Shown: positions 1 through 15,764 of the stretch, piece after piece
Layout of the letters: each line of letters begins with the position of its first letter
Numbering within the stretch: position 1 is the stretch's first letter
Source: Lampropedia cohaerens
GTDB lineage: Bacteria > Pseudomonadota > Gammaproteobacteria > Burkholderiales > Burkholderiaceae_C
Direction of reading: 5' to 3'
DNA: 64,000 nt
Assembly (NCBI RefSeq): GCF_001005215.1
Contig: NZ_LBNQ01000040.1
Span: 1 to 64,000, forward strand
Program-made: the position numbers and the translations under genes
The notes under the pieces: generated by a model
What the model was told of the DNA's origin: nothing
Databases searched by the model: none
The model's input: only the letters and a program-made list of their open reading frames with translations

Positions 1-347
1 AAGCCACCACGACTGGGGCGATAGGGTATGTTCACGGTCAGCGTTTTCTGGCGGCGGCAGACCGTGCTGTAGTCAGGCACGGGCCAATCCAGGCCCGCCA
101 GATGCATCAGGCTCTGCACGAAACCGATGACTTGGCGCAACGGCAGGCCGAACAGCCCCTTGATGGTCAGGCAGAACTGGATGGCGGCATCGCTGAACGT
201 CGGTGATCGACCACGACGACCGGTGGGCTGGCCGTGCCATTGCATGTCACGATCCAGCCAGACCGAGAGCGAGCCTCTGGCCTTGAGGGCTGCGTTGTAA
301 TCTTTCCAGTTGGTGGTGCGGTATTGGGCGGCAGCGGGCTTGGTCAT
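1..347 (-). CDS. IS5-family transposase, N-terminal part (cut by window edge)
   Basis: Reading leftwards from the ATG at 347, the frame begins MTKPAAAQYRTTNWKDYNAA and continues past residue 110 to the window edge with no stop. The opening (Y-R-T-T-N-W-x-x-Y-N-x-A-L), the segment around GRRGRSPTFSDAAIQFCLT and the following PLRQVIGFVQSL are typical of IS5-family (IS903-like) DDE transposases, which catalyse cut-and-paste transposition. The catalytic DDE residues would lie outside the window, so whether it is intact cannot be judged. The start codon sits 46 bases inside the visible terminal inverted repeat, as expected for a single-gene insertion sequence. Confidence 0.85.
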   Translation of the reverse strand, partial: MTKPAAAQYRTTNWKDYNAALKARGSLSVWLDRDMQWHGQPTGRRGRSPTFSDAAIQFCLTIKGLFGLPLRQVIGFVQSLMHLAGLDWPVPDYSTVCRRQKTLTVNIPYRPSRGG

Positions 348-393
348 GGGTGCGCTAGCCTACAGACTCGGGACGTTTGTGCAACAACGCCCC
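1..393 (-). mobile_element. IS5-family insertion sequence, one end visible
   Basis: Outside the transposase start, the bases at about 370-393, read on the minus strand, begin GGGGCGTTGTTGCACAAACG. This resembles the terminal inverted repeats of IS903-like IS5-family elements, so the outer end is placed near 393. The other end and any target duplication are beyond the window. The element lies within a few bases of the left copy of the 116-bp direct repeat, so it landed right at the edge of the integrated island. Confidence 0.7.
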
Positions 394-397
394 TTGT

Positions 398-513
398 TCC
401 CCTAAATTGCAAGGCATCGTCATGACGCCACATGATTCAATAAATGCCGTAACTCATTGAATTTCAAGTGATAAATGGCGGTTTATGAGTCATCATGATT
501 TTTATCAATGGCC
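398..513. repeat. Left direct repeat / distal attachment site of the island
   Basis: This 116-bp stretch matches 11885-12000 with only a few mismatches (for example ataaatggcgg versus agaaatggctg). It starts at tccccta and ends at atcaatggcc. Just after it, gccaggagg followed by a degenerate copy of the T-arm sequence resembles the tRNA-Arg 3' end, but three bases are missing and four are substituted, so it is no longer a functional tRNA end. This is what an unselected distal att site would look like. Confidence 0.85.
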
Positions 514-580
514 AGGAGGAGTTTGAACAAATCTATCAAACCCAATGCTGGCAAGGGTTTGCGCTGTTCGGTTTAAATTC

Positions 581-600
581 GTTCCCCTGGTCGTTCCCCT
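581..600. repeat. Left-end GTTCCCCT repeats (possible integrase arm sites)
   Basis: Two copies of GTTCCCCT lie at 581-588 and 593-600; a third overlaps the left direct repeat at 396-403. The same octamer recurs at the other end of the island (11823-11890). Repeated short motifs at both ends of an element carrying a tyrosine integrase with an N-terminal arm-binding domain are typical of arm-type binding sites. A small hairpin, TGCCTA-AAAAG-TAGGCA at 600-616, follows directly. The binding role is inferred. Confidence 0.5.
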
Positions 601-660
601 GCCTAAAAAGTAGGCAATTGGCGGGGTAAACTTTCTCACACTCCATCGATCAATCCAGAC

Positions 661-984
661 TCACACTAAAGCACGGCACATCAGCACCAGCTCGGCCCCC
701 TTGCTCTTGGGGTTGATGACGGCCTGAATATCGTACTCGCTGCCGTTGTGGTTGATCTTCATCTGCGGCGTGATGTCGGGCCGATAGCGCATGCGGATGC
801 GCGTTGTCACTTCCGATTGCTGGGCCGATGCGGCAAAGAACTCGCGGCCATTTAGGGGTTCCACCGCTGCCCAGACTGTCGCCACGTCTGACCACGTTTC
901 GATGATGCCGCCTGTATTCGGGTTGCGGCCTGTCGTGAGTTTACGGATCGTCACCCGTTGATCCAGGCGTCCTGCTTCAAGCAT
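661..984 (-). CDS. Phage head-tail adaptor (joining) protein
   Basis: About 107 residues beginning MLEAGRLDQRVTIRKLTTG. The R-L-x-x-R-V-T-I opening, the W-A-A-V-E-P-L-N-G-R-E segment and the later TTRIRMRYR are hallmarks of the HK97 gp10 / SPP1 gp16-like head-tail adaptor family, which closes the portal vertex and provides the docking face for a tail. The start at 984 is preferred over an upstream ATG at 1014 because family members start here and the ATG overlaps the end of the connector gene by eight bases (translational coupling). It is the last gene of the head operon; the following bases run into the island end with no tail gene, so the tail must come from elsewhere. Confidence 0.85.
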   Translation of the reverse strand: MLEAGRLDQRVTIRKLTTGRNPNTGGIIETWSDVATVWAAVEPLNGREFFAASAQQSEVTTRIRMRYRPDITPQMKINHNGSEYDIQAVINPKSKGAELVLMCRALV

Positions 985-1243
985 GGCGGCGGTACGGATA
1001 CAGCAGCCGGTCATAGGTGCTGTTGCGCGTCAGTGGGCCGGATGCTTGCCCTTCGCGGTTCAGGTATAGGTCGCCAGCGCCCAACAGCACGGCGGCGTCC
1101 ACCGGCGCAGCGTCGGGTAGCTCTGGCACGTCCAGATAGTCCAGCACGGCGGCCTTGCTGGCGTCCAGGTACTTTTGCAGCAGCGTGTCTTCGGCATCGT
1201 GGTCGATGCGCAGGTGTGATTTCAGGGCTTCAAGATCAATCAT
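977..1243 (-). CDS. Phage head-tail connector (gp6-like)
   Basis: An 88-residue protein beginning MIDLEALKSHLRIDHDAEDT, characteristic of the HK97 gp6 / phage_connect_1 head-tail connector family (L-x-x-x-K-x-H-L-R-I-D, acidic pair, then a helical body ending in a Y-D-R-L-L-x-P-Y-R motif). It forms a ring below the portal. It sits between TerL and the adaptor; a hairpin with arms 1265-1270 and 1292-1297 lies in the 135-base gap upstream. Length and order match cfPICI and HK97-like head modules. Confidence 0.85.
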   Translation of the reverse strand: MIDLEALKSHLRIDHDAEDTLLQKYLDASKAAVLDYLDVPELPDAAPVDAAVLLGAGDLYLNREGQASGPLTRNSTYDRLLYPYRRHA

Positions 1244-1378
1244 GGCTTCCTCTTGGGTGTAAGTGCCAGCCGCGCAGGAAAGGCGCCTGCCGCTGGCTGT
1301 CGGGGTTTTTCAATGCGTGGCACTCACCGACCAATCCACGTCCGGGCTGCGCCTTGCGGCTCCCTCCCGGCAAGGGCG

Positions 1379-2881
1379 TCAAACAAAGAACACACCAGCG
1401 TCTTGCGCGGCATGCTCCAGGCCTGAAACTGCAAAGGCATTGGCAAGTGCTGCCATGCCGTCAATCCGTCCTGTAGGGCGGCTCTTGTCGAACTTGCGAT
1501 TTCCCGCAGGGTCTTGCGTGGTCGTGGCGTTCGCTGCGCACCAGGTCAGCACCGGATGGTTGCCATGTACCAATTCCTGGTTCAACAATGCCGCCTCCAG
1601 CGCATCAATGGCGGGCGCTTGATCGCGGAATCCTTGGCCGATGGGCAGCAGCGGTAGATCCAGGCCCAGCCGCTCCAGCTCAGCCTTGAACACGTCGATG
1701 CGCCAGCGGTCAAAGCCAATGGCCTGAATGTCGAAGTCCGCGCAGATTTCGGCCACTTCCTGGGCCACCTGGTCATAGCGGATGGATGAACCAGGGCAGG
1801 TGCGCAGCAGCCCTTGCTGCACCCACACGTCATAGGGCGCTCGATCGCGTCTGGCGCGCTCGGCAAGCGTGTCCTTGGGCGTCCAAAAGTACGGATGCAC
1901 CTGCCACACACCGTCCACCTGGACGATCACCACAAAGGCCGTCAGGTCGGTGCGGGCGGATAAGTCCAGGCCAGCAAAGGCAGGCGAATCCCCGCAATCA
2001 CGGGTATTTGAAAGCCCACAACCGCAAGCCTTCCACACCTCAGCACTGACGAACGGGCTTTCTGTGGAAACACGCTGGTTCAGCAGCAGATTGCGCACGC
2101 TGTTGGCCATGCTGGGCATACGCTGGGCCTGCTTCATTTGCTCGGCCAGGTCATCCTTGGAGCGGAACAGTCCAAGCGCAGGATTGGCCGCTTGCCAAGC
2201 TGCTTCATCCAACAGGTCACAGTCCTTGGGGGCTTCGTACACGCGGCAAACAATGCGCGGATCGTTGCTGGTCTTGGCGTCATCAATCCACACACTCAGT
2301 AGGTCCGCGTCGCTGGCGGCTTGGGTGGATATGGCGATCAGCAGCGGCTCCGCATGCGCGCCTTGGCTGGTGGTAATGGCGTCCACGAAGTCGCTTTGTG
2401 GGCCTTGCACTTGGCCGATTTCGTCCAGGATCGCCAGCACCGGGCTAAGGCCGTGCGCAGTCTTTCCTTCGGCAGCCAAGGCACGATATTCCACGTTCAG
2501 AGGCAGGCCAATCAGCCGCTTACCCGACGGGATGATGCGCACCAGCGGGGCTAGCTTAGCGGACTGTTGCACCATCTTGCAGGCCAGATTGAACACAAGG
2601 GCGGCTTGGTCGCGGCTCATGGCGCCGCTGACAATCTGCGCGTTTTGCTTGGCTTCAGGCCCCACCAGGTGCGCCAGCAGCAGGCCAGCGATCAAACCGC
2701 TTTTGCCATTCTTGCGGGCAATGCTCAGAATCGCGCGGCGGGTGCCGTGCGGGTTGTCGTACACGTCGCGGATGAAGTCCTTTTGAAAGCCAGCCAGCAC
2801 CAAGGGCTTGCCCACGTCCGCACCTTCAGGCGTGACGCAGTAGCGCTCAATGAATTGGATGATGCGGTCGGCTCGGGTCAT
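1379..2881 (-). CDS. terL: Phage terminase large subunit
   Basis: A 500-residue packaging motor. The N-terminal ATPase has a Walker A-like SIARKNGKSG near residues 53-62 and a Walker B LAILDEIGQ near 149-157. The C-terminal RNase H-like nuclease starts at FAGLDLSARTDLTAF with its metal-binding aspartates. This is the Terminase_1 (HK97/P27-partner) family. It cuts DNA at cos or pac and threads it into the prohead. It starts six bases after the TerS stop. The gene is full length and has no visible lesion, which argues that the island packages its own DNA rather than being a decayed prophage. Confidence 0.93.
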   Translation of the reverse strand: MTRADRIIQFIERYCVTPEGADVGKPLVLAGFQKDFIRDVYDNPHGTRRAILSIARKNGKSGLIAGLLLAHLVGPEAKQNAQIVSGAMSRDQAALVFNLACKMVQQSAKLAPLVRIIPSGKRLIGLPLNVEYRALAAEGKTAHGLSPVLAILDEIGQVQGPQSDFVDAITTSQGAHAEPLLIAISTQAASDADLLSVWIDDAKTSNDPRIVCRVYEAPKDCDLLDEAAWQAANPALGLFRSKDDLAEQMKQAQRMPSMANSVRNLLLNQRVSTESPFVSAEVWKACGCGLSNTRDCGDSPAFAGLDLSARTDLTAFVVIVQVDGVWQVHPYFWTPKDTLAERARRDRAPYDVWVQQGLLRTCPGSSIRYDQVAQEVAEICADFDIQAIGFDRWRIDVFKAELERLGLDLPLLPIGQGFRDQAPAIDALEAALLNQELVHGNHPVLTWCAANATTTQDPAGNRKFDKSRPTGRIDGMAALANAFAVSGLEHAAQDAGVFFV

Positions 2882-2887
2882 GGCTAA

Positions 2888-3289
2888 TCAGTGCGCACGC
2901 GGGATCAGGTCATCGTCGGGGGCATTGCGCGCGTTGCGCTCCAAGGTGTTGGCGTCCACCTGGTCAGCAGCGCGGCCAGTGGTGGCGGTTGGGTGAACGG
3001 CCACCGAGCGCGCCAATGCCATTGCCAAGCGGGTCAGCTTCGCATGCGCATCGCTGCCAACCTGGGTTAGCTCTATGCCGTACTGGGTGCGCGCCAGGTT
3101 TGCGGCCATCAACAGATCCGCTTGCGTCCATAAGTCACGGCTGCGGCTGGTCACAATCGCGTCCCAGAACGGGCGACACTCAGCCGGAAGGTTGACGCAT
3201 TTGGGCGGCTCAATGGGCGCTTGCGCGGCGTTCTGGTGGGCGGCAACGGCTGCTTTGGCGCTGTCAGATCGTTGTCTCTTTGGCTTCAT
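2888..3289 (-). CDS. terS: Phage terminase small subunit (P27 family)
   Basis: A 133-residue protein with a basic, K/R-rich start (MKPKRQRSDSAKAA), a proline-rich linker, then LPAECRPFWDAIV and the LWTQADLLMAANLARTQY helix, the typical core of P27-family small terminases. It recognises the packaging site and loads TerL. An own TerS gives a satellite packaging specificity distinct from its helper. It is followed directly by TerL and preceded, after a 62-base gap, by the HNH gene, the arrangement seen in HK97-like cos modules. Confidence 0.88.
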   Translation of the reverse strand: MKPKRQRSDSAKAAVAAHQNAAQAPIEPPKCVNLPAECRPFWDAIVTSRSRDLWTQADLLMAANLARTQYGIELTQVGSDAHAKLTRLAMALARSVAVHPTATTGRAADQVDANTLERNARNAPDDDLIPRAH

Positions 3290-3351
3290 TCTGATTGCCT
3301 ATTATTTAAGCAGGTAGCGTTAAAAAAAGGGTGGGGGCGCGGTCTTCTGGC

Positions 3352-3717
3352 TCAGCTTTCCAGTGATTTCTGGTTGCGGGCCATCAATGGCTGCACCGTG
3401 CCTCGGTTCCACGGGTGGTTGCTGTCCAGCGGCAGGCCGTCGGCATCGCATCCTTGGCTGACTGCCTTGCCGTGGTCACTGGCTGTCTTGAGCGAGTGAC
3501 AGATATGGCACAGCGGTTGCAGGTTGTCCGGGCTGTTGTCCGATGGGTCGCCGCTCACATGGTCAACGTCGGTGGCAGGCGTTACCAGTCCACGCGCTTG
3601 GCAGTGGCGGCACAGTGGCTCACTGGCCAACACTGATTCACGCAGGCGGCGCCAGGCACTGCTATTCAGAGGGATGGTGCGCCGTGGGTCGGCGTTGCGT
3701 CCTGTTCTGCTGCTCAT
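3352..3717 (-). CDS. HNH endonuclease (head-module type)
   Basis: A 121-residue HNH nuclease. A zinc knuckle is formed by CRHCQARG and LCHICHSLK, and between them lies the HNH core DVDHVSGDPSDNSPDNLQPL. In HK97-like cos phages a small HNH protein encoded beside the terminase is needed for specific cos cleavage with TerL, and the gene is conserved in cfPICIs. Its ATG overlaps the portal stop as ATGA, so it is translationally coupled to the portal gene. Confidence 0.9.
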   Translation of the reverse strand: MSSRTGRNADPRRTIPLNSSAWRRLRESVLASEPLCRHCQARGLVTPATDVDHVSGDPSDNSPDNLQPLCHICHSLKTASDHGKAVSQGCDADGLPLDSNHPWNRGTVQPLMARNQKSLES

Positions 3718-4892
3718 GCGGGCACCTGCTTGCTTGGGTAGGGCTGTGGGGTGGCCACCTGCGTTTCAAGCGCAGGTGATTCGTCTATCCCCTCGATGGT
3801 CGGCAGGTTCTCCAGTGCGCGGGCTTCGCTCTTGAGCATCCAGCCACTGGCAATGCCGCTGGAGTAGAACGCTGCCCGGGTGGTGCTATCGCCCCTTAGC
3901 AGGCCTTCCACGCTGTGCTCCACGAAGTAGGTGCGGCGTGCGGCTTCGCTCAGGCACTTGGCGTTGATGGCCTGTTCCCACATCAATAGCCAGCGGCGCA
4001 ATGTCAGGGTCACGAACTGGCGGGCCATCTCGGTGCTGTTGGAGTAGTTGGCAGACTCTTGCGCGCCCACCAGCACCGGCGGCACCCGGAAGATGCGGCA
4101 TACCTCGATCACACTGAACTTGCGTGCCTCGATCCATTCGGCATCCTCCATCGTCTGGGTGATGGGGTTGTACTTCATGCCACCGTCCAGCACCGGCGTG
4201 GCGCCACTGCGATGGGCTGCCCATGCCTCCTTGATGGTCTGGCGTTGTTCGGCCTTCAAGGCACCAGGTGCTTCCAGCACACCGGCCAGCTTGGCACCGT
4301 TGCGGAAAGTCTCCACGCCCATTTGTTGTTCAGCCTGGGCCAGCTCGATCACGCCACGGGCAACAGCGATAGGGCTAAGGCCAAGCACGCCGTCAGGGCC
4401 GATTCGGTGGCGCAAGTGCAATACCTCATGGGCCAGTAGGCGCACCAGTTGGCCAGTTGTTGAATCCGTGTACTCATAGGCCAGGCTCCCATTCTTCAGG
4501 CGCAGCACCTGAACGTCCTTCAAAGGCCAAAGGGCCGTCACTTGGCCGTCGTGGCCGCGCTCGATGCGGGCAAATGCATTGCCGGTCAGCAGCACCTGTG
4601 CGGTCATCCATTCCCGGAACTCCAAGGCGGTCTGTTCTGGGTTTGCCTGGTCGTGCAAGACGCGATAGAGCGGGTGCTGGCGGGCCTTGTCTTCGCCCTT
4701 GAACACATGCAAGGGCAGACTGGCCACGGTTTCAGAGATAGCGGCCACGCAGGCAAAAACAGCGCTCACGCCTTGCGCGGTTGCCGGGTTCACCGGGCCG
4801 CTGCGCAGGGCTTGGAAGTCCTGCCAGTAGGAATCACCGCCAGGCGCATGGTTGGTGCTGCGGCGCTCGAATAGTTTGTTCAGCCAGTTCAT
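3714..4892 (-). CDS. Phage portal protein (HK97 family)
   Basis: A 392-residue portal. MNWLNKLFERRS at the start, then VSAVFACVAAISETVASLPL, LTGNAFARIERG, the HEVLHLRHRIGPDGVLGLSP stretch and the RIFRVPPVLVGAQESANYSN motif are diagnostic of HK97-type portals. It forms the dodecameric DNA entry ring. The start at 4892 is chosen because it makes an ATGA overlap with the protease stop and matches the family; an ATG at 4910 would add only six residues. Confidence 0.93.
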   Translation of the reverse strand: MNWLNKLFERRSTNHAPGGDSYWQDFQALRSGPVNPATAQGVSAVFACVAAISETVASLPLHVFKGEDKARQHPLYRVLHDQANPEQTALEFREWMTAQVLLTGNAFARIERGHDGQVTALWPLKDVQVLRLKNGSLAYEYTDSTTGQLVRLLAHEVLHLRHRIGPDGVLGLSPIAVARGVIELAQAEQQMGVETFRNGAKLAGVLEAPGALKAEQRQTIKEAWAAHRSGATPVLDGGMKYNPITQTMEDAEWIEARKFSVIEVCRIFRVPPVLVGAQESANYSNSTEMARQFVTLTLRRWLLMWEQAINAKCLSEAARRTYFVEHSVEGLLRGDSTTRAAFYSSGIASGWMLKSEARALENLPTIEGIDESPALETQVATPQPYPSKQVPA

Positions 4893-5416
4893 GCGCAGGT
4901 CTCCAACCAAAGCGCGTTCAGGTCACTTCGGCGCTTGGCCTGTGCGGCAGAACGCAGGGCCACTTCGGTGGCCTGATAGGCCGGGTTGCTGGTCAGTGTC
5001 ACTTCCAGCAGGTTGACGCTGCGCAGCTCGCGGATAGGCTTGTCGCCGTTGCGCCAGGCATCGCCACCAGCGGGCACGATGAAGCCAAAAGAACAACCGG
5101 ACACATCGCCACGCTTGACCAGCTCCAGCACGTCATTGCCGACGGTGGTGTTGGGAATGTCCATCGCAAAGGCCAAGCCCTTGGCGTCACTCCAAAGGCG
5201 CAGGGTCTGGCTTTTGGTGGTGCCGAGAATGGCAGGGCCTTGGTGGTCGTAGAGGGCGCGCACGTTGACCTTGCTGCGCAGGCTGGCATCGAAGGCACCG
5301 GGCTTGACCAGCTCCACGAAGTCGCCAAGGTCTGCCGGGCTGTCGTATACGGCGGCATAGCCAGTGACCGTGCGGCCTGTGGATTGCAGCCCATGGGCTG
5401 TGCGAATCTCGATCAT
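4889..5416 (-). CDS. Prohead maturation protease (HK97 family)
   Basis: A 175-residue protein starting MIEIRTAHGLQSTGRTVTGY. The GYAAVYDSPADLG segment, LYDHQ with the catalytic-type histidine, and SGCSFGFIVP with the serine are characteristic of HK97 gp4-like prohead serine proteases (family U35/S78). It trims the capsid delta domain during maturation. The ATG at 5416 follows GTGGAGG with a six-base spacer, better than the GTG at 5431 that abuts the capsid stop. Confidence 0.9.
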   Translation of the reverse strand: MIEIRTAHGLQSTGRTVTGYAAVYDSPADLGDFVELVKPGAFDASLRSKVNVRALYDHQGPAILGTTKSQTLRLWSDAKGLAFAMDIPNTTVGNDVLELVKRGDVSGCSFGFIVPAGGDAWRNGDKPIRELRSVNLLEVTLTSNPAYQATEVALRSAAQAKRRSDLNALWLETCA

Positions 5417-5431
5417 GGCGCGCGCCTCCAC

Positions 5432-6661
5432 TCAGATGGCGATGTCGTCGACCAGCACGAAGGCTTCAGGGCGGCGCACCGCAGCATCCAGCGTGGTCAT
5501 GATGCGAATCTGTACCGCACCACGGCTGTAGGGGCCGTCCGCATAGGGATTGGCGAGAATGTCGATGCCACCCCACTGGCCAATCACCAATTCCGAGAAG
5601 TCGCCCAGGATGGCGCGGCCTGTCACATCTTCGCCTGCGGTCTTGTTGTCCAGTTGCTGGGTCACTGCCACGGGCAGTCCGGCAAGCTGGCCGTTTTCCA
5701 TCAGGTAGGCGCTGCCAGCAGTCGACGCCTTCAGGGTGCTGCGCAGCTTGGTGGCCACCTGTGGCGTGGTCAGCCAGTAGTTGCCCGCGATGTTGGCCAG
5801 CGTCAGCTTCTCTTGCACTTGCAGCACATTGGCCCAGCCCAGCGTTGCCAGGCTGGCAGTCTGGATGCCGGTCGCGTTGACGATGCCAATCGGTTGCTTG
5901 GCGGCAGCCGTGCCGTGGAGCAATGCCTTGTCCACCGCCAAGCCAATGACTGCGGCCAGGTCATCGCGCACCAGCTTTTCAGCGTCAGGGCTGGACTGTT
6001 GCAGCAGTTGGCGGCTCAGCTCGGCCAGCGCACCCACATGCTTGGGCGACAAGGTGACGGTGTTAAAGCCCAGCGGCGCGCCCACGCTCAGCGCATCGCC
6101 TTCTGCCAGCCAGGTCGCGGCACTGGTGCTGGTCTGCTTGGGGATCACCACGTCACCACGCAGGCCCGTCAGGGTACGCACACCCAGGCTGCGCACGATG
6201 GTGGAATTGCGCAGCAGGCCAATGAATTGGTCGGCACGGAAGTCTTTGGGCACGATGCCGTCCGCCGTGGTCGTGGTGTTGCTGCGGGTCTCGAATGCGG
6301 AAGCTGGCACCAGCACCCCCTTGGCGGTCTGGCCGTTGCGCTTGGCCTCTTGCTGGTATTCCGCAAGGGCACCCGTGACGGCGCGTTGCTCCACCTGGGC
6401 ATTGATGGCGTCCAGCAGGCTGATGCGGCTTTCCAGCTCGGTGCGCTGCTTGTCCACCGGCGCACCAGCGGAACGGCGCTCGGCTTCTTCCAGGAACACG
6501 GCGCGCTGTTCGGCAGCTTCCAGGCCTTGAATCTCAGCCTTCAGGCCGTCGAACTTGGTTTGCGCTTCGGCGCTCAGGTTCTGGCCATTGGCAGCTTCGA
6601 TCAGGTTGCGCGCTTCGGCCACCTTGGCGGCGCGGGCTTCACGGATTTCATGCAATTTCAC
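5432..6661 (-). CDS. Major capsid protein (HK97 fold)
   Basis: A 409-residue phage major capsid protein. Residues 1 to about 100 are a charged, coiled-coil scaffolding (delta) region (KLHEIREARAAKVAEARNLI) that the upstream-encoded family protease would remove. The HK97 fold follows, with recognisable motifs VRSLGVRTLTGLRGDVVIP, ATWLAEGDA, LSPKHVGALAELSRQLLQQS and a C-terminal AVRRPEAFVLVDD strand. It is the first gene of the head operon, immediately downstream of the 6662-7527 control region. Confidence 0.95.
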   Translation of the reverse strand: MKLHEIREARAAKVAEARNLIEAANGQNLSAEAQTKFDGLKAEIQGLEAAEQRAVFLEEAERRSAGAPVDKQRTELESRISLLDAINAQVEQRAVTGALAEYQQEAKRNGQTAKGVLVPASAFETRSNTTTTADGIVPKDFRADQFIGLLRNSTIVRSLGVRTLTGLRGDVVIPKQTSTSAATWLAEGDALSVGAPLGFNTVTLSPKHVGALAELSRQLLQQSSPDAEKLVRDDLAAVIGLAVDKALLHGTAAAKQPIGIVNATGIQTASLATLGWANVLQVQEKLTLANIAGNYWLTTPQVATKLRSTLKASTAGSAYLMENGQLAGLPVAVTQQLDNKTAGEDVTGRAILGDFSELVIGQWGGIDILANPYADGPYSRGAVQIRIMTTLDAAVRRPEAFVLVDDIAI

Positions 6662-6837
6662 GGGGCTCCCCTCTCTCTATCTTCGAAGATGAATCAATAG
6701 AAAATAACTATCGTGATTGATTGTACTATTGATATTGACTATTGCAAAGGGTTTGTGATAGGTGAAGCCTATGTCTGCAAAGGGGTCGCGTTTCAAACGC
6801 CACGCGTGATGCCGCGCGTGCGTGGGGGCGCTGGATT

Positions 6838-6856
6838 CGTCCTCAATTTGAGGACG
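6838..6856. promoter_or_regulatory. Perfect 19-bp palindrome upstream of the head operon
   Basis: CGTCCTCAA-T-TTGAGGACG is a perfect 9-1-9 inverted repeat 177 bases upstream of the capsid start. Its symmetry fits an operator for a dimeric regulator, such as AlpA, the winged-helix protein encoded in the island, or a helper-phage activator. There is no T-run, so it is not a terminator. Confidence 0.5.
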
Positions 6857-7007
6857 GGCGATAACCGTGATGCCGCGCGCGCAGGGTATTCCTTCATCCC
6901 GCAATGGGGAGTGGACGCATGACATCCGTGACGCCTCGCACGTAAAGGCACGCTCCGGTGGTGATAATCGCCACCCCATGTCTCCGGACACTCCGGTGGC
7001 CAAGGTG

Positions 7008-7022
7008 TTCTCACTGTGAGAA
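7008..7022. promoter_or_regulatory. Perfect 15-bp palindrome
   Basis: TTCTCAC-T-GTGAGAA is a perfect 7-1-7 inverted repeat in the same control region. Its sequence is unrelated to the 19-bp palindrome, suggesting a second regulator or a structural role at an origin. Confidence 0.45.
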
Positions 7023-7203
7023 TGGCGGGCAGCACTGCCGCAACGCATGCGCGGGGACACTCCCGAATTGCGTTTTCGTCGTTCGGGAAATGCACCAGAC
7101 AAGTACGGTGCGTTCACGGTTCGTGTACGGTGAATTCACGGTGTTTGTGCGGGGTGCTGGTGCTTCCATCATGGAAATCCTCGCTGTGCGGTCGTTGAGC
7201 GTC

Positions 7204-7393
7204 CGTTCAGCGTTCGCTGTGCGTTCGTTCAGCAGCGCACGCCATCAGTGAGAAACCGACTGGGTTTTTTCTGGAAACCGACTGGGTTTCTGCGGGGTTT
7301 CTATTGGGTTTCTGCGACAGGCCTGCAACGTTTCAGCCGCGTTTCAGGTGTCCGGCTGCAACGTTTCAGGTGCCGTTGCAGGTGTGTTTCAGG
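7204..7393. repeat. 22-bp iterons and 11/22-bp phased repeats (putative replication origin)
   Basis: Three tandem 22-bp units run from 7252 to 7317: two begin GAAACCGACTGGGTTT (7252, 7274), and the last two share GGGTTTCTGCG (7284 and 7306). CGTTCAGC occurs at 7204 and 7226, again 22 bases apart. Downstream, CTGCAACGTTTCAG occurs at 7323 and 7356, and GTTTCAG cores begin at 7330, 7341, 7363 and 7386, spaced 11, 22 and 23. Helically phased repeats next to a rep gene are the usual architecture of an iteron origin. They lie just downstream of the rep gene on the minus strand. Confidence 0.7.
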
Positions 7394-7527
7394 TCGCAGG
7401 CCGACCGCGAGCGCTTTCACCCCTTTCTTGCCTGTTTCTGGTCTCTGGATGGCGGGTGGCGAGTGAGGGGGACAATGGACGATGCCAGGCAGATTATCTT
7501 GATATGGCTTCCGGACACCTCTGCAGT

Positions 7528-8454
7528 TTATTGCCTTGTCAGCCAGTCATGGACGGTTGACCGGCTAACACTAAGTACCTCTGCAATCTCTCGCACACTG
7601 TTGCCCATCGTGTGAAGCCAGATTGCGCGCTCCAGCAGTTCCTTGCGCTTGGCAGCACCCTTGCGAGCACCACGGCTGGCCTGCGCTTGGCGAAAGCCTT
7701 CAGGGGTGAATCTCTGCCACGTCCAGCGTGCTACAGATCGGGCAATGGCGCGCACTTCGGCTTCGGTCAAGGGGATGGCCAGCGTTGCATTCATGGCGGC
7801 TGCAATGGCCTGAACGTCTGCCAGAAAGGCTTCATTGCCACCGGGGCGCCAGTGTTTGCGCACGGCCTGATAGCTGGCCTTGCGCAGGTGTTCGAACAGG
7901 TAGCAATTGCGCCCCAGCCCAGCATAGTCTTCGCGTACGGCGCAGCGCATCATTTCCTTGGCCGTCGGCAGCTTGACCCATTCGGCCAGTTCGCCCAGGT
8001 CATAGGGTTGCGTACGGGGGCATTCGGTCAGCCAGTGCGGATGCAGCGGGTTTTGCGTCACCACGCCGCGATAGCCAAAGTCGCCACCCCATGCGGTATT
8101 GAGGCCGTGCTGAACGGCGGCCAGGTACTGGATGGGGTGGGCGTGTGCAATGTCGGTGGTTGGCACCGGCGCTGCAAGCTGATAGGCCACATGCGCATGG
8201 CCTGTGCGTGGATTGGTGGTGGTGAAACTCGGTGCCGGGCAATTGGCAGCTTGCCAATAGCGAGCGGCTCCGGGTGTGTCCACGTCCAGTACAATCCACC
8301 GCACCAGATTGGATGCGTTCGGCTGGATGTGCGGGTGCTTCAATGCCTCATCGCGCAGGCTGCGGGATATTCCTTGGCGGGGGTCGTCCGTACAGAATGC
8401 GCGATGGGGAACACTGCCAGCAAACGCCTCAAGGGGCGCTGGCAATGCTGACAT
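7528..8454 (-). CDS. Replication protein (RepA/replicase-like with PriCT domain and C-terminal HTH)
   Basis: A 308-residue protein. Residues about 45-135 (RWIVLDVDTPGAARYW, then PSFTTTNPRTGHAHVAYQL) match the catalytic core of ColE2-type plasmid replicases / primase-polymerases. Around 165-245 (GRNCYLFEHLRKASYQAV and LTEAEVRAIARSVARWTW) is a PriCT-1-like domain. The last 50 residues (GNSVREIAEVLSVSRSTVHD) form a resolvase-like helix-turn-helix. It would initiate island replication, and the iterons directly downstream are its likely target. Its ATG is next to the stop of the preceding HTH gene, so the two are coupled. Similar Rep/primase genes sit between alpA and the capsid genes in cfPICIs. 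Confidence 0.82.
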   Translation of the reverse strand: MSALPAPLEAFAGSVPHRAFCTDDPRQGISRSLRDEALKHPHIQPNASNLVRWIVLDVDTPGAARYWQAANCPAPSFTTTNPRTGHAHVAYQLAAPVPTTDIAHAHPIQYLAAVQHGLNTAWGGDFGYRGVVTQNPLHPHWLTECPRTQPYDLGELAEWVKLPTAKEMMRCAVREDYAGLGRNCYLFEHLRKASYQAVRKHWRPGGNEAFLADVQAIAAAMNATLAIPLTEAEVRAIARSVARWTWQRFTPEGFRQAQASRGARKGAAKRKELLERAIWLHTMGNSVREIAEVLSVSRSTVHDWLTRQ

Positions 8455-8679
8455 TTAGCGTTGCGTTCCAGCGATCAGCCAATAGCGCTTGACTTTGGTG
8501 GTCCGGCCAAACCGGGTCGGCACGGTCTCCCAATCGTCGTGAATGCGGTGGCCATCCTTGCGCAGTTCGGAGATGGTGGAGTGCAAGCAATGGTCGCCGT
8601 AGAACTCCGCATCAAAGCGGTTCAGAGAGCGCGTGTGTAGCGCCTCCAAGATTACGGTTTTCTTGTGGGGGTGTTGCAT
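8455..8679 (-). CDS. Small winged-helix-like DNA-binding protein
   Basis: A 74-residue basic protein starting MQHPHKKTVILEALHTRSLN. The pattern AEFYGDHCLHSTISELRKDGHRI, followed by a strand pair ending RYWLI, looks like a winged helix in which HSTISELRKDG is the recognition helix. Proteins of this type often sit between alpA and rep in phages and satellites. The start at 8679 is preceded by GAGGGGGCGAAG, a good ribosome site; a start at 8727 would overlap alpA. Its function is probably regulatory or accessory to replication, but this is not demonstrated. Confidence 0.6.
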   Translation of the reverse strand: MQHPHKKTVILEALHTRSLNRFDAEFYGDHCLHSTISELRKDGHRIHDDWETVPTRFGRTTKVKRYWLIAGTQR

Positions 8680-8689
8680 CTTCGCCCCC

Positions 8690-8935
8690 TCATTGCGCTT
8701 GCTTGCGCAGCCATTCGCGCACTTCACCGGCTACCCAACGGGTGCAGCGAATGCCGAATTTGCGCGGGGCGGGGAAATCACCAGCGGCCACGCGGCGGCG
8801 GATGGTGGCTTCACTGAAGCCCGTCATTTGACGGACGGTTTCTATCTTGAGTAGCGCTTCCTGAATCTGCGCGGCATAAATGCTCTGCGGTTGGCTGCGT
8901 TGCTTGTACTTACTGAGACTTACTTGTTGCGTCAT
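8690..8935 (-). CDS. alpA: AlpA-family transcriptional regulator
   Basis: An 81-residue protein whose core (ALLKIETVRQMTGFSEATIR, then RRVAAGDFPAPRKFGIRCTRW and EVREWLRKQ) is the AlpA/excisionase-like winged helix (phage_AlpA). Family members activate satellite excision and expression genes, as in P4-like elements and Gram-negative PICIs. It lies 10 bases upstream of the winged-helix gene and heads the replication cluster; a terminator (8994-9024) separates it from the cargo gene upstream. Its own promoter should lie between 8936 and 8994, but no consensus boxes are obvious. Confidence 0.88.
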   Translation of the reverse strand: MTQQVSLSKYKQRSQPQSIYAAQIQEALLKIETVRQMTGFSEATIRRRVAAGDFPAPRKFGIRCTRWVAGEVREWLRKQAQ

Positions 8936-8993
8936 TTTGCACCTCGTTGTTTCGATGGGTGCAATGCTTCAGTCTCAGGGTTGCATCAGGGCA

Positions 8994-9024
8994 AGAAAAA
9001 ATTGCCTGACAGCAGGCTCAGGCC
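8994..9024 (-). terminator. Rho-independent terminator after the cargo gene
   Basis: On the minus strand GCCTGA (9023-9018) pairs with TCAGGC (9009-9004) around an eight-base loop, followed by AATTTTTTC. It lies 11 bases beyond the stop of the 9035-9898 gene and blocks read-through into alpA. Confidence 0.75.
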
Positions 9025-9034
9025 AATCTGAAGG

Positions 9035-9898
9035 TTATTTTCTTAGATGATCCGGCCTTGTGATTAAGTCAATCGCTTCAGCCTCTCTGTTTGATAGTTT
9101 GAACTCCTCTTTGAGCCAGTGTGTGACTTGTTTTTGAAGCGGCCAAGTGTCTTCTGATGCATACTTTTGGTTTACTTTTTCTGCAATACTCGCCAGCCTG
9201 GTGTTCCCTCTCTCTAGATATGGTGATATTTCTGATGAGGGCTTGTTATCAAATCTCTCCCTCAGGGTGGTTGCGATTATTTGAAGTTGATCCTCTCGAA
9301 GTTCATCGGCAGAAAAGAATAGCTCATATTCCTCCAATTCATTTCTATTGATGTATATTTTTTTGCCCCACTCGGGAAACTCATTTCCCTTGGTGGCGTA
9401 TCGGTATTTCCCGAAAATCTCAATAAATGACAACATTGGGCTATTAATGACTCTCGCATACCTGCCAAGCTCGCGTGCTTCATATATTGGTAGTGCGCGG
9501 TAAACCTTGTGACATAAATATCCTGCGTAACTATGCAGAGCATCCATGATCGGATCTAGAGCGTAGCTTAACACTTGATGCATTGGTTGGTCTGCTTTTA
9601 TTTGATTTATATGCCATCCACCATCAAAAAGAGAGTCTTCCGAATAAATCACTTCCTTTAAGCACCATTGTTCAAATGTAATCCATAGATCGTCATTTAT
9701 TATTTTTCCTCCAGAATGAGCGTTTAAAATATGGTGTGAAACGTAGCCAAAAATCCTTCGCTCAGGCATATCTTTGGGAATTCTTGAAACATATTTGGCG
9801 TACTCGACAATTAAATTTAAATCATCTCTTCTCTCTAATAAATCTTTATTAAAAATTTCCCATTCTCTAAGTAGTTGTTGGCGCTCTATACTATCCAT
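9035..9898 (-). CDS. Orphan AT-rich cargo protein of unknown function
   Basis: A 287-residue soluble-looking protein beginning MDSIERQQLLREWEIFNKDL. I recognise no family. It is rich in aromatic and acidic residues, has no signal peptide or membrane segment, is mostly helical by appearance, and ends in a basic helix-rich tail (LKEEFKLSNREAEAIDLITR). Its codons are far more A/T-rich than those of the flanking genes, indicating separate acquisition. A GGAGG-type ribosome site precedes the ATG. Terminators lie on both sides (8994-9024 and 9921-9955), the signature of a moron: an independently transcribed cargo gene. In PICIs, genes in this position often encode phage interference or defence functions; that role is inference here. 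Confidence 0.7.
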   Translation of the reverse strand: MDSIERQQLLREWEIFNKDLLERRDDLNLIVEYAKYVSRIPKDMPERRIFGYVSHHILNAHSGGKIINDDLWITFEQWCLKEVIYSEDSLFDGGWHINQIKADQPMHQVLSYALDPIMDALHSYAGYLCHKVYRALPIYEARELGRYARVINSPMLSFIEIFGKYRYATKGNEFPEWGKKIYINRNELEEYELFFSADELREDQLQIIATTLRERFDNKPSSEISPYLERGNTRLASIAEKVNQKYASEDTWPLQKQVTHWLKEEFKLSNREAEAIDLITRPDHLRK

Positions 9899-9920
9899 TT
9901 CATCCCTCCAGTTTCTCTGA

Positions 9921-9955
9921 TAAAAAACAGCCCCACCCGTCAGGGAAACGGGCTT
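9921..9955 (-). terminator. Rho-independent terminator upstream of the cargo gene
   Basis: On the minus strand AGCCCGT pairs with the downstream ACGGG/GGGCT side (arms about 9948-9954 and 9929-9940), followed by GTTTTTTA (9928-9921). It ends transcription of the 9988-10488 gene just before the cargo gene. Confidence 0.6.
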
Positions 9956-9987
9956 TCGGGGATCAGCCTAAGGCTGGTGGAAAGTGC

Positions 9988-10488
9988 TCAAGCGTCATGC
10001 TTGGGCTTCTTTGCCTCGATGTGGGGCAAGTCGTTAATCAGACTGCTTGCTTCCTCTGCGGCATGGATGTCACTCTTCAGCCGCCTGCGTATGTACTTGG
10101 CTTCTTGTGGGGCCGCGTAGCGCGTTGCACGCAGCAGCTCAGCAACATGCAGCAGCCCATACGCAAGATCGTCTGGCTTTTGACTGCTGGCTTTCAGTCG
10201 CTCCAACTCTGCGATGGCCACGCGAATAACGTAGTCTCCGCACACTGATCGAGTGCAACATTCCGGCCATACGTGGTCAGCGGGCATCGGCTCGCCTGAA
10301 CCGCCTTCGATCATGGCGGCTTCAGTGGCGCGCACTGAGAACAGCAGGCGGTCGATCAGGTGGCCAGCGATGACGGCAGCGTGCGCCTTTGTGGTCGGGG
10401 TGGTGGGCTTGAGATTCATGTCGCCCCCCCTAGCAAGTCGCGCATCTTGGTGCGCACGGCTTGTCTCTGTTAAAGTTTGCGTGTCCAT
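9988..10488 (-). CDS. Hypothetical island protein
   Basis: A 166-residue protein beginning MDTQTLTETSRAHQDARLAR. No family is recognised. The centre is helical (HLIDRLLFSVRATEAAMIEG, then YVIRVAIAELERLKAS) and the C-terminus is charged (AKYIRRRLKSDIHAAEEASS). Two cysteines in CCTRSVC could bind metal but are too few to claim. The start at 10488 follows AAAGGA with six bases spacing; an internal ATG at 10419, behind a G-rich stretch, is an alternative. It lies downstream of int, in the same direction, and ends at a terminator. Confidence 0.6.
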   Translation of the reverse strand: MDTQTLTETSRAHQDARLARGGDMNLKPTTPTTKAHAAVIAGHLIDRLLFSVRATEAAMIEGGSGEPMPADHVWPECCTRSVCGDYVIRVAIAELERLKASSQKPDDLAYGLLHVAELLRATRYAAPQEAKYIRRRLKSDIHAAEEASSLINDLPHIEAKKPKHDA

Positions 10489-10583
10489 TTTTCATCCTTT
10501 GATGATGGTCAGGCGGGCGGGTTGTTCTCAGGCTTCCCGTTCGCCATCTTCGCCCCTGAAAAACCGCGCAGGGGCACCGCGGG

Positions 10584-11822
10584 TTAAGCCTTGCGAAACT
10601 CGATTACTTGCGCACCCTGGCGCAGTTCGTCCAGATAGTCCGCCCACTGCTGCATCAGCTTGCGGCGTTGCGTCAGGAATTGGGCGCGGTCATAAGCAGC
10701 ACCCAGCGGGCCTGACTTGTTGTGGGCAAGCTGGGCCTCGATCACGTCGGGGTTGGCGTCCAGTTGCTCCACTAGCATCGTGCGTGCCATGGCGCGGAAA
10801 CCGTGTGCGGTCATTTCCTCGTTGCTGAAGCTCATGCGGCGCAGCGCCAGCCTCACCGTGTTTTCGCTCATCGGTCGCGCCTTGGTGGTGAGGGCTGGGA
10901 AGACGTACTTTCCACCGCCGGTTAGCGGGTAAATCTCCTGCAGCAGCTTGACGGCCTGCTTGGCCAGTGGCACCAGGTGGGGCCTGCCGTTGAGCTTTTC
11001 CTGCTTGGTGCGCTTCATCTTGACGCTGGGGATCGTCCACATGGCGTCCTGAAGGTCTACTTCCTCCCACTCCATCATGCGCACGTTGCCGGGCCGCTGG
11101 AAGGTGAGGGCGCTCAGCAGCATGGCCACGCGGGTGACGGGTTGGCCGGTGTAGCCATCCATCGCTCGCAGCAATTCACCGGCGCGGGCAGGTTCAAGCA
11201 CTGCGGCCATGTTCTTGGTCGTCACGGGCTTGAGGGCACCGTGTAGGTCCGGCGAAGGGTTGCGTTCGCAGCGTCCGGTGGCGATGGCGTAGCGGAACAC
11301 CTGGCCTGTGGTCTGGCGCAGCGTGTGGGCGGTTTCAATTGCGCCGCGTCGTTCAATACGTCGCAGAACCTGTAGCAGTATCGGTGCGGTTATCTTGTCG
11401 ACCGGCATTGCACCGATCCAAGGGAATACGTCCTTTTCCAGACGCTCCAGCCAGCGGGTGGCGTATTTCTCACTCCAGCCGTCGCGCTTGATTTCATGTA
11501 GCTCACGCGCTACGGCTTCGAAGGTGTTACTGGACTGGTGGCGGTTGAACAGCTTTTCTTCCTGCCGTTTCATCGCCGGGTCGATGCCCTTGGCGTGGAG
11601 TAGGCGGGCTTCATCGCGCGCCAGCCGGGCCTGTTTGAGCGAGATGGTCGGATAGCGTCCCAGCGCCAGACGCTTTTCCTTGCCGCCGAAGTAGTACTTC
11701 CAGAACCAGCGCAGCGATCCGGAAGGGCCAGCTTCCAGATACAGCCCCCCGCTGTCGCTCAGCCTGACACGCTTTTTGTCAGGCGGGCAGCGCAGGTTTT
11801 TGCATTCGATTTCTGTGAGCAT
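10584..11822 (-). CDS. int: Tyrosine-recombinase integrase (DUF4102 / P4 type)
   Basis: A 412-residue phage integrase. Residues 1-90 form the DUF4102 arm-binding domain (LRCPPDKKRVRLSDSGGLYL, GSLRWFWKYYFGGKEKRLAL). A core-binding SAM-like domain follows (YATRWLERLEKDVFPWIGAM). The catalytic domain carries Arg in LTFQRPGNVRMMEW, the H-x-x-R box in TAHGFRAMARTML, a later His in AQLAHNKSG, and the nucleophilic Tyr in GAAYDRAQF. It would integrate and excise the island at tRNA-Arg. It is the gene nearest the tRNA, as is usual for this class, and a GTTCCCCT motif in inverted orientation lies at 11823-11830 right at its start. Confidence 0.95.
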   Translation of the reverse strand: MLTEIECKNLRCPPDKKRVRLSDSGGLYLEAGPSGSLRWFWKYYFGGKEKRLALGRYPTISLKQARLARDEARLLHAKGIDPAMKRQEEKLFNRHQSSNTFEAVARELHEIKRDGWSEKYATRWLERLEKDVFPWIGAMPVDKITAPILLQVLRRIERRGAIETAHTLRQTTGQVFRYAIATGRCERNPSPDLHGALKPVTTKNMAAVLEPARAGELLRAMDGYTGQPVTRVAMLLSALTFQRPGNVRMMEWEEVDLQDAMWTIPSVKMKRTKQEKLNGRPHLVPLAKQAVKLLQEIYPLTGGGKYVFPALTTKARPMSENTVRLALRRMSFSNEEMTAHGFRAMARTMLVEQLDANPDVIEAQLAHNKSGPLGAAYDRAQFLTQRRKLMQQWADYLDELRQGAQVIEFRKA

Positions 11823-11890
11823 AGGGGAACAAATCCGGAGGAGAACGCGAAAAGTCGCTTCGTTCCCCTAATTGTTCCCCTCGCTCCCCT
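11823..11890. repeat. Right-end GTTCCCCT repeats (possible integrase arm sites)
   Basis: GTTCCCCT occurs at 11862-11869 and 11874-11881, a one-base variant GCTCCCCT at 11883-11890, and an inverted copy at 11823-11830. With the copies at the left end (396-403, 581-588, 593-600), this gives clusters at both ends of the element, as expected for arm-type sites of a lambda/P4-like integrase. They also overlap the int upstream region and could mediate autoregulation. Confidence 0.5.
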
Positions 11891-12000
11891 AAATTGCAAG
11901 GCATCGTCATGACGCCACATGATTCAATAAATGCCGTAACTCATTGAATTTCAAGTGAGAAATGGCTGTTTATGAGTCATCATGATTTTAATCAATGGCC
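11885..12000. repeat. Right direct repeat / tRNA-proximal attachment site
   Basis: This is the second copy of the 116-bp direct repeat (compare 398-513, offset 11487). Its last five bases encode the discriminator base, CCA tail and final acceptor base of tRNA-Arg, so the tRNA is restored at this junction. Confidence 0.85.
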
Positions 12001-12072
12001 TGCCAGGAGGGACTCGAACCCCCGACCTGCTGCTTAGAAGGCAGCTGCTCTATCCAGTTGAGCTACTGGCAG
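11996..12072 (-). tRNA. tRNA-Arg (anticodon TCT)
   Basis: A 77-base cloverleaf. The acceptor arms CTGCCAG and CTGGCAG pair perfectly, the D-arm starts GCTC, the anticodon stem-loop CTGC-CTTCTAA-GCAG carries TCT, the T-arm contains GTTCGAGTC, and a genomically encoded CCA ends at 11996. It is the integration target of the neighbouring island. Confidence 0.97.
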
Positions 12073-15139: not shown

Positions 15140-15222
15140 TCCGTGGCGCACCGCGCCCGTGTGCCAGCGGGTGCTTTGCCGACATGCCCGCGCAAGGCAA
15201 ATCGCTTAACATCCCCGCATAG

Positions 15223-15657
<435 letters not shown>

Positions 15658-15764
15658 CGGGATATCAAGCTGGCGCAGTTCATGCCGTTGATCGGCAGCA
15701 CGTGGCCATGCGGACACGGTAGCCTTGCGCGTTGGTTTCAACCATTCCTACAAGTAGTTTCCCC

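What the first reader, a model, noticed from the sequence alone, without database searches (positions are those of the whole stretch)
398..12000. A complete capsid-forming phage satellite (cfPICI-like) in a beta-proteobacterium
The element carries integrase, AlpA, Rep, its own capsid, protease, portal, HNH, TerS, TerL and two connectors, but no tail or lysis genes, in 11.5 kb bounded by att repeats at a tRNA-Arg. All head genes are full length and translationally coupled. This matches cfPICIs, satellites best known from gamma-proteobacteria and Firmicutes, so a beta-proteobacterial member with a distinct Rep and cargo is worth describing. It implies a tail-donating helper phage in the same hosts.
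Basis: partly seen in the sequence, partly recalled or inferred. Interest (0 to 1): 0.9.

Follow-up and report, generated by a model that had tools for sequence, protein, structure and literature searches.

The report
Tail-less phage satellite building own capsid
This 11.5-kb stretch looks like a phage satellite that encodes a complete virus head but no tail, so it would have to borrow tails from a helper phage; close relatives are common in related bacteria, and it carries a conserved structured RNA of unknown function beside its DNA-packaging genes.

Summary
The gene list is right: integrase, AlpA, Rep, capsid, protease, portal, HNH, TerS, TerL, connector and head closure, beside tRNA-Arg(TCT). 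The reading as a capsid-forming satellite is well supported. Of 44 named loci with enough flank, 35 (19 beta-, 15 gammaproteobacterial, 1 unplaced) have an upstream integrase and the order capsid-protease-portal-HNH-TerL; in HK97 terminase precedes capsid. In 7 of 11 relatives a candidate attachment repeat lies within 400 bp of the last head gene. A beta-proteobacterial member is therefore ordinary.

Three corrections or additions. (1) The 116-bp 'att repeats' are not the crossover core but the satellite's integrase-side end; the left copy is probably the end of a second, tandem element cut by the IS. (2) Window 1295-1376(-), between TerL and connector, is the orphan Rfam RNA Proteo-phage-1 (RF03044). 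It covaries strongly, including a pseudoknot absent from Rfam's structure line, and tracks these satellites: 10 of 11 family genomes with this capsid, 7 of 388 without. (3) Five circular metagenomic relatives carry ParA and no integrase, so the head module also occurs on plasmid-like circles.

Particles, induction, helper and the left junction are untested.

The parts
1..390 (-). 5' end of a multi-copy insertion sequence (DDE_Tnp_1_5 transposase start at 347); contig edge at 1
   Evidence: Pfam PF13737 1.7e-37; 11 long copies in the genome including this one; IS border read from 10 junctions
391..513 (.). left copy of the integrase-side end, with one arm-like GTTCCCCT at 396-403 near the IS edge; probably the end of a second, tandem element
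   Evidence: 97% to 11885-12000; alignment with right copy and L117; tandem origin inferred
511..528 (.). degenerate copy of the tRNA-Arg 3' end (likely old crossover core)
   Evidence: sequence alignment; role inferred
581..600 (.). two GTTCCCCT repeats, likely integrase arm sites at the distal end
   Evidence: read in sequence; same word at 11862-11881; function inferred
661..1014 (-). head closure protein (Phage_HCP, Hc1)
   Evidence: PF05521 4.9e-33; phrog_25
977..1243 (-). head-tail connector / adaptor (gp6-like)
   Evidence: PF05135 3.6e-12; PDB 3jvo Gp6 E=0.0023
1295..1376 (-). Proteo-phage-1 structured RNA (RF03044)
   Evidence: 80.4 bits, gathering 42; covariation
1379..2881 (-). terminase large subunit, HK97-type
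   Evidence: PF20441, PF03354; 62% to HK97/HK022/HK106/HK446
2888..3289 (-). terminase small subunit
   Evidence: phrog_5601 1.5e-31
3352..3717 (-). HNH endonuclease
   Evidence: PF01844 4.4e-6, over cut-off
3714..4910 (-). portal
   Evidence: PF04860 7.8e-104
4889..5431 (-). prohead protease
   Evidence: PF04586 1.1e-43
5432..6661 (-). major capsid protein
   Evidence: PF05065 6e-41; 48-63% to 11 aligned family relatives; all 144 phage records matched are under 60%, 27.7-35.6% in the 25 listed
7528..8454 (-). Rep / primase-type replication initiator
   Evidence: PF03090 7.5e-30, PF08708, HTH
8455..8727 (-). small winged-HTH protein
   Evidence: PF14090
8690..8935 (-). AlpA-type regulator/excisionase
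   Evidence: PF05930 3.8e-11; phrog_66
9035..9898 (-). cargo ORF, 287 aa, GC 0.39
   Evidence: no family in Pfam, PHROGs or PADLOC; none in plasmids or viral contigs; GC
9988..10488 (-). ORF of unknown function, 166 aa
   Evidence: no family
10584..11822 (-). tyrosine integrase
   Evidence: PF22022, PF13356, PF00589; the genome's two other matches are 35% and 33% identical
11862..11890 (.). GTTCCCCT twice and GCTCCCCT once, likely integrase arm sites
   Evidence: read in sequence; function inferred
11885..12000 (.). right copy of the integrase-side end, abutting the tRNA
11996..12072 (-). tRNA-Arg(TCT), intact

Best explanation
An integrated phage satellite of the capsid-forming type. A tyrosine integrase inserted it at the 3' end of tRNA-Arg(TCT). 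AlpA is likely the switch and excisionase partner, and Rep starts replication of the excised form. The late operon then makes a complete head (capsid, protease, portal) and a cos-type packaging motor (TerS, TerL, HNH) that loads the satellite's own DNA; connector and Hc1 close the head. No tail gene is visible, so finished particles need tails and lysis from a helper phage, probably one with HK97-like neck geometry. A structured RNA (Proteo-phage-1) lies in the late operon; my best guess is that it acts in packaging or against the helper. Shown by sequence: gene content, order, relatives, boundaries in relatives, RNA family and covariation. Inferred: AlpA and Rep roles, packaging type, helper tails, that the RNA is made, and its role.
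For: Gene identities. The 13 places of this capsid in 10 other genomes of the family all show capsid-protease-portal-HNH-TerS in order; 8 of 13 run on to Hc1, 2 are cut by contig ends, 3 lack TerL or connectors. In 11 with a readable far end, a repeat of a tRNA 3' end lies 101-378 bp after the last head gene in 6 (L047, L048, L051, L052, L053, L056; in L051, L052 and L056 the tRNA gene itself is there), a 15-bp repeat without a tRNA at 320 bp in L057; L045 has one at 2.4 kb, and L046, L049, L050 none of 13 bp or more. Named loci: 35 of 44 with enough flank have integrase upstream and capsid-protease-portal-HNH-TerL order (21 of 65 dropped for short flank). HK97 has TerS-TerL-portal-protease-capsid-Ad1-Hc1-tail. 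Of six downstream ORFs scanned, four (L045, L051, L052, L057) match metabolic or transport families, L046 an HTH/M78 regulator, L048 nothing over cut-off. Phage records: TerL 62% in the 25 listed and none over 80%; capsid under 60% in all 144.
Against: The left junction is hidden by the IS and contig edge. No particle, excision or helper data. No reference cfPICI sequence was held, so kinship with the proven E. coli elements was not tested (not held; no DNA match). The tail screen (12 HK97 and Mano proteins, 0 hits in 158 loci, 11 hits on their own records) is weak: it also found nothing in L276, a contig with phage-like gene order. One lambda-type tail family (PF13550) is absent from this genome, so no resident helper was identified.
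Confidence: 0.86

Rival explanations
1. Remnant of a full prophage: the tail half was lost or lies beyond the IS.
For: Contig ends inside the IS at position 1; TerL is 62% identical to HK97-type phages.
Against: In relatives the head module ends with the same genes, with candidate att repeats within 400 bp in 7 of 11. Terminase and capsid stand in reverse order to HK97. The int-side repeat lies about 150 bp past Hc1, before the IS.
Confidence: 0.06
2. The left repeat marks a tandem array: a second related satellite sat to the left and was cut by the IS or deleted. This adds to, and does not replace, the main reading.
For: The left copy carries integrase-side sequence up to the IS edge, then a degenerate tRNA 3' end. 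Six relatives repeat exactly only 13-17 bp of tRNA. L164 has a second integrase in the same direction just after Hc1.
Against: The only other integrase matches in this genome are 35% and 33%. The same pattern could come from a deletion or an uncommon long attP identity.
Confidence: 0.6
3. A gene transfer agent or domesticated head that packages host DNA instead of itself.
For: The capsid profile matches chains 6tba and 6tb9 (Rcc01687, a gene transfer agent capsid by recall) at 1e-7, after 8gta at 4e-41.
Against: Integrase, AlpA, Rep and patchy distribution (11 of 399 genomes); none of the 5 same-genus genomes in that sample has the capsid at 1e-60.
Confidence: 0.04

Closest known systems
Capsid-forming PICIs (cf-PICIs; Alqurainy 2023 recalled, not held)
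   Same: Own capsid, protease, portal, connectors, TerS, TerL and HNH; AlpA and primase-type Rep (gene sets as listed in passages of PMC10690885 and PMC10448857).
   Different: No demonstrated helper; kinship with the E. coli or other proven elements not tested; carries RF03044 RNA, which those passages do not mention.
HK97-type phages (HK97, HK022, HK106, HK446)
   Same: TerL 62% identical; in HK97 an adaptor and Hc1 also follow the head genes and an HNH gene is present. HK106 and HK446 mobilise a cf-PICI (passage of PMC11389934).
   Different: Reverse order of terminase and capsid; no close phage capsid found; phages have tails.
Proteo-phage-1 RNA (RF03044)
   Same: 80.4 bits over the full 82 positions.
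   Different: The Rfam output gives the type 'Gene; sRNA' and no function; its structure line has two stems, one enclosing a hairpin; a further pseudoknot is supported here; its frequent home is identified here as satellites.
MulchRoom/MiniFlayer Streptomyces satellites
   Same: Satellites with their own capsid genes (passages of PMC10690885).
   Different: That paper reports no significant homology to cf-PICIs; virulent helpers. Not compared here.

Membership tests
cf-PICI | Own major capsid protein, protease, portal and head-tail connectors | tested here: met
   definition from passage of PMC10690885
cf-PICI | Own TerS, TerL and HNH endonuclease | tested here: met
cf-PICI | AlpA homolog and Pri-Rep type initiator | tested here: met
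   AlpA; Replicase+PriCT_1; listed as signature genes in passage of PMC10448857. That this Rep equals their 'Pri-Rep' is inferred from domains
cf-PICI | No tail or lysis genes | tested here: inconclusive
   none among the genes scanned in the visible element; left of 391 not visible; 7 of 11 relatives bounded closely
cf-PICI | Integrase and integration at a specific site | tested here: met
   tRNA-Arg sites without this island in 8 of 9 other same-genus genomes; one of these, L112, holds other DNA with a second tRNA-end piece
cf-PICI | Same lineage as a proven cf-PICI | tested here: inconclusive
   no reference sequence held; no E. coli DNA match to one gamma relative's capsid
cf-PICI | Induced by a helper and packaged with helper tails | not testable with these tools
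   needs experiment
Proteo-phage-1 RNA RF03044 | Score over gathering cut-off | tested here: met
   80.4 vs 42 bits
Proteo-phage-1 RNA RF03044 | Conserved base pairing | tested here: met
   18 pairs, 94.3% of cells paired, 14 pairs with two-sided change, 0 of 500 shuffles

The most novel reading that the evidence does not exclude
Proteo-phage-1 is a satellite RNA: a pseudoknotted RNA that satellites keep beside their packaging genes even when the head genes are swapped for unrelated ones, and that works in packaging the satellite or in taking over the helper. The same satellites also exist as ParA-bearing plasmid-like circles that dispensed with integration several times.
Probability: 0.4. Interest if true: 0.82.

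Novelty: new member of a known kind. Interest (0 to 1): 0.6.

Why it matters
The island itself extends a known kind. Its value lies in what it exposes: a defined family of capsid-making satellites common in beta- and gammaproteobacteria, a concrete home for an orphan structured RNA, which makes its function testable by deleting 82 bp from an inducible satellite, and an apparently plasmid-like version of the same satellite.

Tried and rejected
Tail-tip family PF13550 in the own genome: none, so no helper named. PurL, the tRNA neighbour in a same-genus genome, to find the left flank: it lies inside another contig. E. coli genomes with the capsid DNA of a Pseudomonas relative: no match. PDB for a cf-PICI chain: none recognised by name among the matches. 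HK97 cos region against the TerL-connector element: for the window 19 against a shuffled 95% level of 22; for the consensus 23 against 22 with a shuffled maximum of 27, so no clear similarity. Cargo 287-aa ORF: no family, no relatives in plasmids or viral contigs, single-sequence fold useless (pLDDT 40.8). Rep relatives elsewhere in the family: near L058-L064 no head gene was found (two of these seven loci are only 4 kb), so Rep is also carried by other elements. Rep in viral contigs with the single protein: none; it turned up later in loci found by capsid. One search was meant to look for the RNA in phages but its query lay beyond the RNA; repeat it with the right stretches. ParA is not confined to this head module: L279, found by the ParA query, has none of the seven profiles tried. 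Literature on the RNA by name: 0 papers in the held library. On plasmid-borne capsid-forming satellites: of 113 and 13 papers matching were listed; no title or abstract start reports such elements; texts not read for this.
Full report
What is in the window. The window is on contig 40 of a 41-contig, 3.16-Mb genome. On the minus strand, reading away from tRNA-Arg(TCT), lie integrase, a 166-aa ORF, a 287-aa ORF, AlpA, a small winged-HTH protein, Rep, then capsid, protease, portal, HNH, TerS, TerL, connector and head closure. No tail or lysis family was found among the proteins scanned.

Relatives. The capsid was sought in 399 genomes of the family: 11 genomes had it at E<=1e-60, the window's own included. 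I fetched the 13 places outside the window. All show capsid-protease-portal-HNH-TerS in order. Eight run on through TerL and connector to Hc1; L054 and L055 are cut by contig ends; L047 lacks TerL; L048 and L051 have no connector or Hc1 match. The window's integrase finds a relative upstream by tblastn in 9 of 13 and a profile built from these and other loci finds one in 13 of 13. In the named collection 65 loci were returned; some are the same genomes, for example L123 and L049. Of 44 with at least 5.5 kb upstream and 6 kb downstream (21 dropped), 35 have an integrase upstream on the same strand and capsid-protease-portal-HNH-TerL in order: 19 beta, 15 gamma, 1 unplaced; of these 35, 18 have AlpA, 25 a connector or Hc1 hit and 23 the RNA. 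The 9 that fail are 4 alphaproteobacterial loci, 3 Nitrosospira loci, Salinisphaera and a Myxococcia MAG.

Boundaries. For 11 relatives the far end was compared with the integrase end. In 6 the repeat is the 3' end of a tRNA gene and lies 101-378 bp beyond the last head gene; in L057 it is 15 bp without a tRNA at 320 bp; in L045 a 19-bp tRNA-end repeat lies 2.4 kb further; in L046, L049 and L050 none of 13 bp or more was seen. Six ORFs beyond the head genes were scanned: four match metabolic or transport families (cytochrome bd oxidase, periplasmic binding protein, GDPD, saccharopine dehydrogenase), one an HTH/M78 regulator, one nothing over cut-off. Twelve tail-region proteins of HK97 and Mano gave no hit in 158 loci and 11 hits on their own records, but also none in L276, whose gene order looks like a phage's; so this screen says little about other tail families.

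Order and lineage. HK97 runs TerS-TerL-portal-protease-capsid-Ad1-Hc1-tail. The satellite runs capsid-protease-portal-HNH-TerS-TerL-connector-Hc1. TerL is 62% identical to HK97-type phages in the 25 records listed; no record of 1,624 exceeds 80%. The capsid is under 60% to all 144 phage records matched and 27.7-35.6% in the 25 rows shown, but 48-63% to the 11 family relatives aligned and 69-70% to L120.

The repeats. Of 9 other same-genus genomes, 8 have tRNA-Arg(TCT) sequence where similarity begins at the tRNA 3' end, without the 116-bp repeat and without a match to the window's integrase nearby. The ninth, G402, has at this tRNA a satellite-like element with a related integrase (66%) and AlpA (65%) but distant capsid and TerL (about 30%; L117); its integrase-side end is homologous to the repeat (77% over 191 positions). 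So the repeat is the satellite's integrase-side end. Its left copy, 391-513, reaches the IS edge, includes one arm-like word and is followed by a degenerate tRNA end. A second satellite end is the simplest source. L164 shows two integrases in the same direction on either side of a head module. The genome's other integrase matches are only 35% and 33%, so the neighbour, if any, is gone or truncated.

The RNA. The 135-nt gap between TerL and connector stood out as conserved across 43 aligned loci. Rfam identifies it as Proteo-phage-1, RF03044, 80.4 bits against a gathering score of 42. On 31 sequences a structure of 18 pairs, with the Rfam stems plus a pseudoknot of 5 pairs, has 94.3% of cells paired and 14 pairs with two-sided changes; 0 of 500 shuffles reach this, and slid versions give 32-41% paired. 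The pseudoknot stem alone is 98.0% paired, 3 of its 5 pairs with two-sided change. It is not in the structure line printed by Rfam. RNAalifold on its own predicted only 8 pairs, including the second Rfam stem. I chose the pseudoknot by eye from the same sequences, which favours it somewhat.

Where the RNA occurs. In 399 genomes of the family, to all appearance the same sample as, RF03044 hits 17 (15 over the cut-off); 10 of the 11 capsid genomes have it and 7 of the other 388 do. Of 18 places, 11 are this head module and one (L303) a decayed form with integrase and AlpA; three (L304-L306) are integrase+AlpA elements with other or distant head genes, one (L308) has an integrase, two (L307, L309) gave none of these hits. 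In 369 genomes drawn from the class only one besides the window's own has it, below the cut-off; 14 control genomes have none. A model built from the 31 sequences hits 28 of 65 named loci (12 of the 28 were in the model) and 52 of 95 viral contigs (18 in the model), and not the HK97 or Mano stretches. Of the 35 full loci, 16 of 19 beta and 7 of 15 gamma have it. In beta members it lies shortly after TerL; in gamma L147, L150, L152, L160 and L167 it lies just after Hc1, and in L140 and L148 after TerL. An exact pattern search of viral contigs gave 39 contigs, 36 of them at most 14.6 kb and 3 of 31-42 kb; two of the three long ones score weakly with the model (23 and 33 bits) and one well (73 bits). 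No control for the length make-up of that collection was made. Beside some hits stand unrelated terminases or head proteins. By blastn neither the window's RNA nor that of L189 has a match in 50,697 phage records; in plasmids there is one partial match, half the query at 82%, on a Paracoccus versutus replicon with no annotated feature. Blastn misses distant RNAs, so absence from true phages is likely but not shown.

Plasmid-like relatives. Five of 155 contigs examined have identical ends (55 or 127 bp), that is, they close into circles of 10.36-10.81 kb. All five have a ParA-type ATPase, this head module and no integrase hit. Three more contigs have ParA: L249 and L278 are partial and carry head genes, L279 (8.3 kb) has none of the seven profiles tried. 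None of the 8 has integrase; 111 contigs have integrase and none of these ParA; 36 have neither, most of them short. L277, L278 and L279 were found by a ParA query, so they are not independent of the trait. On a quick capsid tree of 130 rows the five ParA rows found by capsid (L126, L218, L227, L228, L249) need 4 changes, which suggests repeated switches; the tree is a short search. An Acinetobacter plasmid also carries the head module, next to RepM.

How it probably works. See Best explanation. In HK97 the HNH protein promotes cos cleavage with TerL (passages of PMC9410871), which supports cos-type packaging here by analogy. Connector and Hc1 are the parts that would meet a helper tail. In several gamma members and in L304 and L308 the RNA comes after the last gene taken for a head gene, which argues against a general role in controlling the next gene and leaves packaging or a trans role as the leading ideas; none is tested.

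Known or new. cf-PICIs are described as widely distributed in bacteria (passage of PMC10690885). This island meets their gene-content features. Descent from the same lineage as the proven ones was not testable here. I therefore file it as a new member of a known kind, with the RNA link and the ParA circles as the parts worth following.

Noticed in passing
L126, L218, L227, L228, L277 (circular contigs); L249, L278 (partial): Capsid-forming satellites with ParA and no integrase, the first five closing into 10.36-10.81 kb circles; L277 also has a resolvase-like ORF by eye.
   Followed up: partly
window 1295-1376 (-): Orphan Rfam RNA Proteo-phage-1 in the TerL-connector gap, with a covarying pseudoknot.
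   Followed up: yes
L117 1-10400: An element with distant head genes but related integrase and AlpA at the same tRNA-Arg in a same-genus genome.
   Followed up: partly
L172, L173, L174, L180: Alphaproteobacterial loci with related capsids and the order HNH-TerL-capsid-protease-portal-integrase, possibly another satellite type.
   Followed up: no
L319, L320, L323, L324, L330, L338: Proteo-phage-1 RNA beside unrelated terminase or head genes; proteins of L319, L324, L330 and L338 were scanned, the others judged by eye.
   Followed up: partly
L268 8917-14797: Complete head and packaging module on an Acinetobacter schindleri plasmid beside RepM.
   Followed up: no
window 9035-9898 (-): AT-rich (GC 0.39) 287-aa ORF of unknown family inside the satellite, probable recent cargo.
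   Followed up: partly
L164 near 15091-16400: Second integrase in the same direction after the head module, a likely tandem satellite in Acinetobacter.
   Followed up: no
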